Shown piece by piece: positions 47,759 to 49,030 of a DNA stretch of 64,000 nucleotides (positions are counted from its first letter, which is position 1; every line of letters starts with the position of its first letter). The stretch lies in assembly GCF_003667315.2 (NCBI RefSeq), contig NZ_RCTZ02000007.1, positions 124,001-188,000 on the forward strand, given 5' to 3'. Position numbers and translations under genes: made by a program. This DNA is from Tropicibacter alexandrii (lineage in GTDB: Bacteria; Pseudomonadota; Alphaproteobacteria; Rhodobacterales; Rhodobacteraceae). Below the pieces are notes generated by a model. That model saw only the letters and a list, made by a program, of their open reading frames with translations, was not told the origin of the DNA and ran no database searches.

Positions 47759-48079
47759 ATGACGGACGACACCCATTTAGGCCTGCCGGTCGGCGATCAC
47801 GACATGAGCCACGGCACGCAGGTCACGTCAGTTCGCAGTTTCGATCATGGCGGCAAGGCGGTCGAGATCGCCGCCACCTACGAGGTCAAGGTCAACGGCG
47901 TCGCGCGGCAGTTGCATTTCTCGGTCGGGCAGGATGGCAAGGTTACCTCCCATCTGCGGCCTTACGTGGCCTACGACTCGCTCGTCGACATGGTCAAGGA
48001 CATCATCGACCACTATCCCGACGATTTCGGCCCCGCGCCGCAGGGCGGTCATGGCGACCACCATGGGCACGGAGGGTGA
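47759..48079 (+). CDS. Small His-rich protein preceding the tyrosinase
   Basis: This 106-residue protein has a middle region VEIAATYEVKVNGVARQLHFSVGQDGKVTSHLRPYVAYDSLVDMVKDIIDHYPDDFG and a C-terminal tail GGHGDHHGHGG. I do not recognise the fold. It has no signal peptide. AAAGGGGAG precedes the ATG, and the tyrosinase gene follows after 3 bases, so the two are co-expressed. The His tail could bind copper for delivery to the tyrosinase, in the manner of a caddie protein, although it is not a MelC1 homologue by sequence. That role is inference. Confidence 0.8.
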   Translation: MTDDTHLGLPVGDHDMSHGTQVTSVRSFDHGGKAVEIAATYEVKVNGVARQLHFSVGQDGKVTSHLRPYVAYDSLVDMVKDIIDHYPDDFGPAPQGGHGDHHGHGG

Positions 48080-48082
48080 GCC

Positions 48083-49030
48083 ATGCGCAAGGATATCATG
48101 AGCGACGCCACCGCGCGGGCCGACTATATCGACGGGGTCAAGGCGCTGAAGGCCACCCCGGCGGACGATCCGCGCTATTCGCGCTATGACTGGTACGTGC
48201 TGTGGCACGCCGCAACGATGATGACGATGACCCCGCCGGGCAATTCGGCAGGGCGCAACGCGGCCCATAGCGGTCCGGCCTTTCTGCCGTGGCACCGCTA
48301 TTACCTGAAACGGTTCGAGGCCGAGATCGCGCAGGCCTTGGGCAAGCCGGATTTCGCGCTGCCCTATTGGAACTGGGTGGCCGATGGCGCACTGGGCGAG
48401 ACGGATCAGGGCAACGCGCCGATCTGGGGGCTGGACGCCATGGGGGGCAGCGGCTCGCCCGTTGCAAGCGGGCCCTTCGCCTATGACCCGACCGACCCGG
48501 ACACATGGGTCGTGCGGATCGAGCTGCGCCCGTCGGGGCTGTTCCTCGTGGAGCGGGGGCTGAACCGGATGATCCAGCAAGCGGGCATTCGGCGGTTGCC
48601 GAACACCGGCTCGGTGGCGCGGACCTTGCTGCGCGGCGATTACGACGCTGCGCCGTGGGATCGCAGTTCGCTGCCCAGCTTCCGCAACGAGCTGGAAGGT
48701 TGGCGGGGCGAGGGCATGCACAACCGGGTGCATGGGTTCGTCGGCGGGGATATGGGCTTTGGCCATTCGCCGAACGACCCGATCTTTTTCCTGCACCACT
48801 GCAATGTCGATCGAATCTGGGCCTTCTGGCAGCAGCGCAACGGCGCGGCGACCTACCTGCCGCTGGACAGCGCACCGGCCGACCTGATGCGCCATCGCGT
48901 GTCCGACCCGCTTTACACTTTGCCGGGCGATCCGGGGGCAAGCGGGGCGGTGATCTCGGACATGTTCGCCGATCCCTCGGCCAGCTACGATTCGCTGTCG
49001 GATTTGGCGGATTTGGCCGTCGTCGTCTGA
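48083..49030 (+). CDS. Tyrosinase-family copper oxidase
   Basis: This 315-residue protein has type 3 copper site A: His in WYVLWHAATMM, His in NAAHSGPAFLPWHRYYLKRFE (the AHSGPAFLPWHR pattern is diagnostic). Site B is GMHNRVHGFVGGDM and PNDPIFFLHHCNVDRIWAFWQQ, with three His. It oxidises phenols or catechols; monophenolase versus diphenolase activity cannot be told. There is no signal peptide. It follows the His-rich gene and its last 46 bases overlap the convergent MFS gene. Confidence 0.93.
   Translation: MRKDIMSDATARADYIDGVKALKATPADDPRYSRYDWYVLWHAATMMTMTPPGNSAGRNAAHSGPAFLPWHRYYLKRFEAEIAQALGKPDFALPYWNWVADGALGETDQGNAPIWGLDAMGGSGSPVASGPFAYDPTDPDTWVVRIELRPSGLFLVERGLNRMIQQAGIRRLPNTGSVARTLLRGDYDAAPWDRSSLPSFRNELEGWRGEGMHNRVHGFVGGDMGFGHSPNDPIFFLHHCNVDRIWAFWQQRNGAATYLPLDSAPADLMRHRVSDPLYTLPGDPGASGAVISDMFADPSASYDSLSDLADLAVVV

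What the first reader, a model, noticed from the sequence alone, without database searches (positions are those of the whole stretch)
47759..49030. Tyrosinase with a co-translated His-rich partner protein
A 106-residue protein ending GGHGDHHGHGG lies 3 bases before a type 3 copper oxidase. Streptomyces uses a caddie protein (MelC1) to deliver copper, but this protein is not similar. It may be an independent solution, making a new tyrosinase-chaperone system.
Basis: partly seen in the sequence, partly recalled or inferred. Interest (0 to 1): 0.6.

Follow-up and report, generated by a model that had tools for sequence, protein, structure and literature searches.

The report
Remote caddie-like chaperone paired with tyrosinase
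A bacterium carries a copper-using pigment enzyme next to a small histidine-rich helper protein; the helper is probably not a new invention but an unrecognised distant cousin of the known Streptomyces copper-delivering 'caddie' protein, and its relatives sit beside the same kind of enzyme in other bacteria.

Summary
ORF A (47759-48079, 106 aa, tail GGHGDHHGHGG) lies 3 bases before ORF B (48083-49030, 315 aa), a PF00264 tyrosinase with all six copper-binding His. ORF A has no Pfam or NCBIfam match and at first looks unrelated to MelC1. Homologues from 11 other sources (10 unnamed proteobacterial genomes and the solved orphan NE1242, PDB 2jv8) show that it belongs to a family whose profile matches Streptomyces MelC1 (hhalign probability 97.2, E 3.6e-11, score 62.5 against at most 16.4 in 200 shuffles). 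The alignment runs over the whole core and puts MelC1's active-site Tyr98 on ORF A's Tyr69. All nine homologues found with the small protein as bait (9 of 9) lie directly upstream of a tyrosinase. Tyrosinases with a His-rich partner form one clade (100/98). So this is probably not an independent solution but a diverged, probably cytosolic branch of the caddie system in Proteobacteria, with no visible Tat signal and a His-rich appendage whose position varies. Most likely it holds apo-tyrosinase, delivers copper and blocks the active site until loading. No function was tested; structure searches were inconclusive. New variant of a known kind.

The parts
47759..48079 (+). ORF A: 106-aa small His-rich partner, remote MelC1 (caddie) homologue
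47825..48031 (+). Conserved core of ORF A (residues 23-91); strands then a helix in a low-confidence model; contains H53, H65, Y69, Y72
   Evidence: model (pLDDT 48.8 and 69.4)
48044..48076 (+). His/Gly-rich C-terminal tail GGHGDHHGHGG (residues 96-106)
   Evidence: similar C-terminal tails in L035 and L070-L072
48071..48076 (+). GGAGGG Shine-Dalgarno-like run inside the end of ORF A, ahead of ORF B
   Evidence: read from the sequence; coupling inferred
48083..49030 (+). ORF B: 315-aa tyrosinase (type 3 copper oxidase), no C-terminal lid domain apparent
   Evidence: PF00264 E 2.8e-42; copper-ligand His by alignment

Best explanation
ORF A and ORF B are a diverged proteobacterial version of the MelC1-MelC2 (caddie-tyrosinase) operon. 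Inferred mechanism: ORF A is made just before ORF B from the same transcript. Its core binds the folded apo-tyrosinase over the active site, probably placing the Tyr69 loop (equivalent to MelC1 Tyr98) in the pocket. His53, His65 and the His-rich tail collect copper and pass it to the two copper sites, and loading frees the enzyme. Neither protein shows a signal peptide by eye, so this probably happens in the cytosol. Shown here: gene pair, conservation of the pair, profile homology to MelC1, intact copper ligands. Inferred: complex formation, copper transfer, latency, location.
For: Profile homology to MelC1: 12-row family A7 against 7 Streptomyces MelC1 rows (all PF06236) gives probability 97.2, E 3.6e-11, score 62.5 against a maximum of 16.4 in 200 column shuffles. 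His-rich rows alone score 47.2 (shuffle maximum 14.8) and short rows alone 45.1 (16.6). L070-L072 keep LHTM where MelC1 has LHxM, and an NYSFP loop like MelC1's NHYESFP. Pairing: 9 of 9 small-protein-first hits with E <= 1.7e-6 lie directly upstream of a tyrosinase (L035, L036, L051, L052, L053, L067, L070-L072; neighbours). Tyrosinases of the His-rich type form one branch, support 100/98. Streptomyces pairs have the same gene order. MelC1 as copper-delivering caddie with Tyr98 in the active site: PMC6312201 (introduction, part 1, and passages).
Against: ORF A alone gives no PF06236 match, and against the MelC1 profile by itself it reaches only 37.2% probability. No PF06236 match passes the cut-off in any of 11 genomes. 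Identity over the aligned core is about 15%. The Tyr98 equivalent is Phe in L035 and shifted by one residue in L070-L072. The Met of MelC1's LHxM is Ser in the window. Fold searches with the single-sequence model listed neither caddie nor 2jv8 (model too weak to judge). ORF A lacks MelC1's Tat signal. No wet evidence.
Confidence: 0.7

Rival explanations
1. An independent tyrosinase-chaperone family that resembles MelC1 only by convergence.
For: No Pfam or NCBIfam hit for ORF A or, beyond chance level, for the eight family members of A4; about 15% identity; His tail at the other end from MelC1's.
Against: Profile scores about three times the shuffled maximum from two separate halves of the family; the same order of elements over the core; same gene order relative to the tyrosinase.
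Confidence: 0.1
2. ORF A is a caddie-derived inhibitor or folding lid that keeps the tyrosinase latent, with copper coming from elsewhere; the His tail is a metal buffer or a chance GC-rich low-complexity tail.
For: MelC1's HxM and Tyr98 residues are only partly kept; the short members counted have almost no His (1 to 3 in 67-72 aa) yet are equally paired; the His tail is not unusual for this window.
Against: A His-rich stretch recurs in all six His-rich-type members, whatever its position.
Confidence: 0.18
3. The neighbouring genes are unrelated in function; ORF A is a bystander.
For: None beyond lack of experiments.
Against: 9 of 9 homologues found with the small protein as bait lie directly before a tyrosinase (neighbours).
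Confidence: 0.02

Closest known systems
MelC1 / caddie protein of Streptomyces (PF06236; PDB 1wx2 chain B, 6j2u chain A)
   Same: Gene directly upstream of tyrosinase; shared core (E-x-Y/F-x-G-x-x-I, I-D/N-G, DG-x-W/V, Tyr loop, helix); His-rich stretch; aligned Tyr98
   Different: Below Pfam detection; no twin-arginine signal; His-rich part is C-terminal in the window; Met of LHxM not kept in the window
NE1242 of Nitrosomonas europaea (PDB 2jv8, uncharacterised)
   Same: Same core family: profile without NE1242 hits it with E 1.7e-25
   Different: 73 aa, no His-rich tail; its own gene neighbours were not examined here
PpoB2 of Marinomonas mediterranea (COG5486)
   Same: Non-MelC1 copper chaperone co-operonic with a tyrosinase in a Gram-negative (PMC2855505, passages)
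   Different: Putative transmembrane metal-binding protein; ORF A is small, soluble-looking and MelC1-related
C-terminal lid domain of zymogen tyrosinases (Verrucomicrobium, Ralstonia, Burkholderia)
   Same: Proposed same job of covering the active site (PMC9454253, passages)
   Different: Part of the same chain; ORF B has no such extension

Membership tests
MelC1 (PF06236) | Match to the curated Pfam model above cut-off | tested here: not met
   0 families for ORF A at E <= 10; no place over cut-off in G000
MelC1 (PF06236) | Homology at profile level over the core domain | tested here: met
   hhalign 97.2%, E 3.6e-11; shuffles
MelC1 (PF06236) | Gene directly upstream of a tyrosinase | tested here: met
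   Streptomyces pairs
MelC1 (PF06236) | Tyr98 in the tyrosinase pocket | tested here: inconclusive
   Window Tyr69 aligns; Phe in L035, shifted in L070-L072; no complex model
MelC1 (PF06236) | LHxM and HY copper-site residues (role recalled; invariant in A5) | tested here: inconclusive
   Window keeps LH (H53) but has Ser for Met and Pro for the His before Tyr; L070-L072 have LHTM
MelC1 (PF06236) | Twin-arginine signal that exports the complex | tested here: not met
   ORF A starts MTDDTHLGLPVGDHDMSHG, read by eye; no predictor was run
MelC1 (PF06236) | Binds apo-tyrosinase and delivers copper | not testable with these tools
   needs bench work
NE1242 family (2jv8) | Sequence homology of the core | tested here: met
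   window plus L005 profile hits 2jv8 at E 0.0019; window alone against the five short rows 95.5%; profile without NE1242 E 1.7e-25
Tyrosinase (PF00264) | Pfam domain and six copper-binding His | tested here: met
PpoB2 / COG5486 | Transmembrane metal-binding protein | tested here: not met
   No long hydrophobic stretch in ORF A by eye; description of PpoB2 from PMC2855505 passages

The most novel reading that the evidence does not exclude
A whole unannotated proteobacterial branch of caddie proteins loads tyrosinase with copper inside the cytosol. In the His-tailed members the tail works as a movable copper antenna that replaces MelC1's HxM site, and the short NE1242-type members represent a minimal caddie without any antenna. 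This would be a tyrosinase metallation route without Tat export.
Probability: 0.35. Interest if true: 0.6.

Novelty: new variant of a known kind. Interest (0 to 1): 0.42.

Why it matters
It extends the caddie system, described in the passages seen only for Streptomyces, to Proteobacteria. It gives a testable function to an orphan solved structure (2jv8) and to small proteins that Pfam and NCBIfam do not name. It also offers a natural comparison (His-tailed, short, Tat-exported) to ask which part of a caddie moves copper. For users of bacterial tyrosinases it points to the partner to co-express.

Tried and rejected
Single-sequence searches for ORF A led nowhere: Pfam and NCBIfam 0 families, plasmids no match, phages only chance-level matches with the core, 101 related genomes only the own copy. 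A five-row profile found no relative in viral contigs. The genome-contig scan with the tyrosinase gave one distant locus, L003, with no small partner gene seen before its tyrosinase among ORFs of 70 aa or more.

Structure: two AlphaFold runs on window sequence alone (pLDDT 48.8; core, 69.4). Foldseek gave no match with E <= 0.001 and VIA-align no Z >= 5. Neither caddie nor 2jv8 was listed; the model is too weak to draw anything from that.

Rejected: the His tail as the defining oddity, since its density is not unusual in this window. Rejected: a classic MelC1 elsewhere in the genome; the only PF06236 place in G000 is weak (E 0.107) and lies in another contig.

Rows dropped before counts: 13 weak hits (L037-L049, E 0.00176 to 0.092) and 3 (L054-L056, E 0.024 to 0.037) were not counted as family. 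ORFs around them were looked at for L037, L038, L040, L042 and L054 only, and those listings covered the + strand of the locus, whereas the matches of L038, L042 and L054 lie on the - strand. L053's tyrosinase reads in two frames and was left out of the tree. Literature on proteobacterial caddie relatives: searches showed none in the listings and passages seen; most subscription papers are not held.

Full report
What is there. ORF A (47759-48079, +, 106 aa) ends GGHGDHHGHGG and its stop codon is followed by GCC and the ATG of ORF B (48083-49030, +, 315 aa). A GGAGGG run inside the last codons of ORF A can serve ORF B, so coupled translation is likely (inference). ORF B is a tyrosinase: PF00264, E 2.8e-42, the only PF00264 match in the genome. 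H42, H62, H71 and H213, H217, H239 sit on the copper-ligand positions, and the Glu of LEGW and the Asn after H213 are kept as in Priestia and MelC2; PMC6312201 (introduction) names Glu182 and Asn191, which I take to be the corresponding residues. ORF B has no long C-terminal extension, so any lid must come from another protein. ORF A alone matches nothing in Pfam or NCBIfam. Neighbours include metG, MATE and MFS genes, which give no functional hint.

Is the His tail unusual? By itself no: ORF A has 11 His in 106 aa and at most 4 in 12 residues, and three other listed ORFs of the window have 5 in 12. The case rests on conservation.

The family. The nearest tyrosinase in 385 genomes of the class, apart from the own one, is L005 (46% identity). 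The gene just upstream of it encodes a 169-aa protein that matches ORF A with 42% identity over 74 residues, E 2e-18; there the His-rich stretch comes before the core. A two-row profile found L035 (E 7.4e-24) and L036 (E 1.7e-6) in 398 genomes of the phylum. Wider profiles found L051, L052, L053 in 369 genomes, L067 in 194 and L070-L072 in 292. All nine of these, found with the small protein as bait, lie directly upstream of a tyrosinase. The spacing runs from an overlap (L035; 1 base in L070-L072) to 84 bases (L036). The family is patchy: 4 of 292 genomes in the order, own included, 3 of 54 in one genus.

Two shapes exist. His-rich members (window, L005, L035, L070-L072) carry 11 to 16 His in 106-169 aa; the three short members counted (L036, L051, L067; 67-72 aa) carry 1 to 3. 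The short type includes NE1242 of Nitrosomonas europaea, solved as PDB 2jv8 and called uncharacterised. A profile without NE1242 hits it with E 1.7e-25, and the window-plus-L005 profile alone gave E 0.0019. Whether NE1242 itself lies by a tyrosinase was not checked.

Link to MelC1. Seven MelC1 proteins were taken from Streptomyces plasmids, five annotated as tyrosinase cofactor or copper chaperone and two read from records without gene annotation there; all seven match PF06236. Profile-profile comparison with the family gave 95.4%, E 1.9e-8 for 8 rows and 97.2%, E 3.6e-11 for 12 rows. Scores of 62.5 (all), 47.2 (His-rich six) and 45.1 (short six) stand against maxima of 16.4, 14.8 and 16.6 in 200 shuffles of the MelC1 domain columns. 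The reversed MelC1 alignment scored 15.6. ORF A alone against MelC1 is weak (37.2%), which explains why it looks unrelated. L070-L072 look intermediate, with LHTM for MelC1's LHxM and NYSFP for NHYESFP. The alignment puts MelC1 Tyr98 on Tyr69 of ORF A.

Tyrosinase tree. In a 21-row tree the tyrosinases with His-rich partners form one branch (100/98), those with short partners another (100/100) and MelC2 a third (95/96); four rows without a recognised partner do not group. This fits long joint inheritance of enzyme and partner; the order among the branches is not resolved.

Mechanism. In Streptomyces the caddie holds apo-tyrosinase, puts Tyr98 in the active site, helps two copper ions in, and is then modified and released (PMC6312201, introduction part 1 and passages). 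In some cases it also takes the enzyme out by Tat (PMC9454253 and PMC8375020, passages). ORF A most likely does the first part. Neither ORF A nor ORF B shows a signal peptide by eye, so export is unlikely; no predictor was run. The His-rich appendage, at the C end in the window, L035 and L070-L072 and before the core in L005, would be a copper collector (inference).

Against. Identity is about 15%; Tyr98 is Phe in L035 and shifted in L070-L072; the Met of LHxM is missing in the window. Fold searches with a single-sequence model were uninformative. No binding or activity was measured. Because curated MelC1 features (Pfam match, Tat signal) are not met, ORF A is filed as a remote homologue that probably works like a caddie, not as a MelC1 member.

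Known or new. A non-MelC1 tyrosinase copper chaperone, PpoB2, is already known from a Gram-negative (PMC2855505, passages), so even a separate chaperone would not be the first. The searches showed no report of a proteobacterial caddie relative in the listings and passages seen. Verdict: new variant of a known kind.

Noticed in passing
PDB 2jv8 (NE1242), matched: An orphan solved protein of Nitrosomonas europaea belongs to this family and is thus predicted to be a tyrosinase partner.
   Followed up: partly
L036 989-1498 + and L053 1795-2391 (- strand): A 169-199 aa protein with a hydrophobic N-terminal stretch precedes the short partner in two loci; the two look alike by eye and neither has a Pfam match.
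   Followed up: no
L070-L072, first 1250 bases: A haem-binding-like protein with a CxxCH motif (ANCEECHNAPP or near) lies before the partner-tyrosinase pair in all three.
   Followed up: no
window 48985-49030: The tyrosinase gene and a convergent MFS transporter gene overlap tail to tail by 46 bases.
   Followed up: no
L006, L007, L036, L051, L052, L053, L067: These proteobacterial tyrosinases have C-terminal extensions beyond the core (in most of them with repeats around a TDTFLTLFGPDD-like motif) that ORF B lacks.
   Followed up: no
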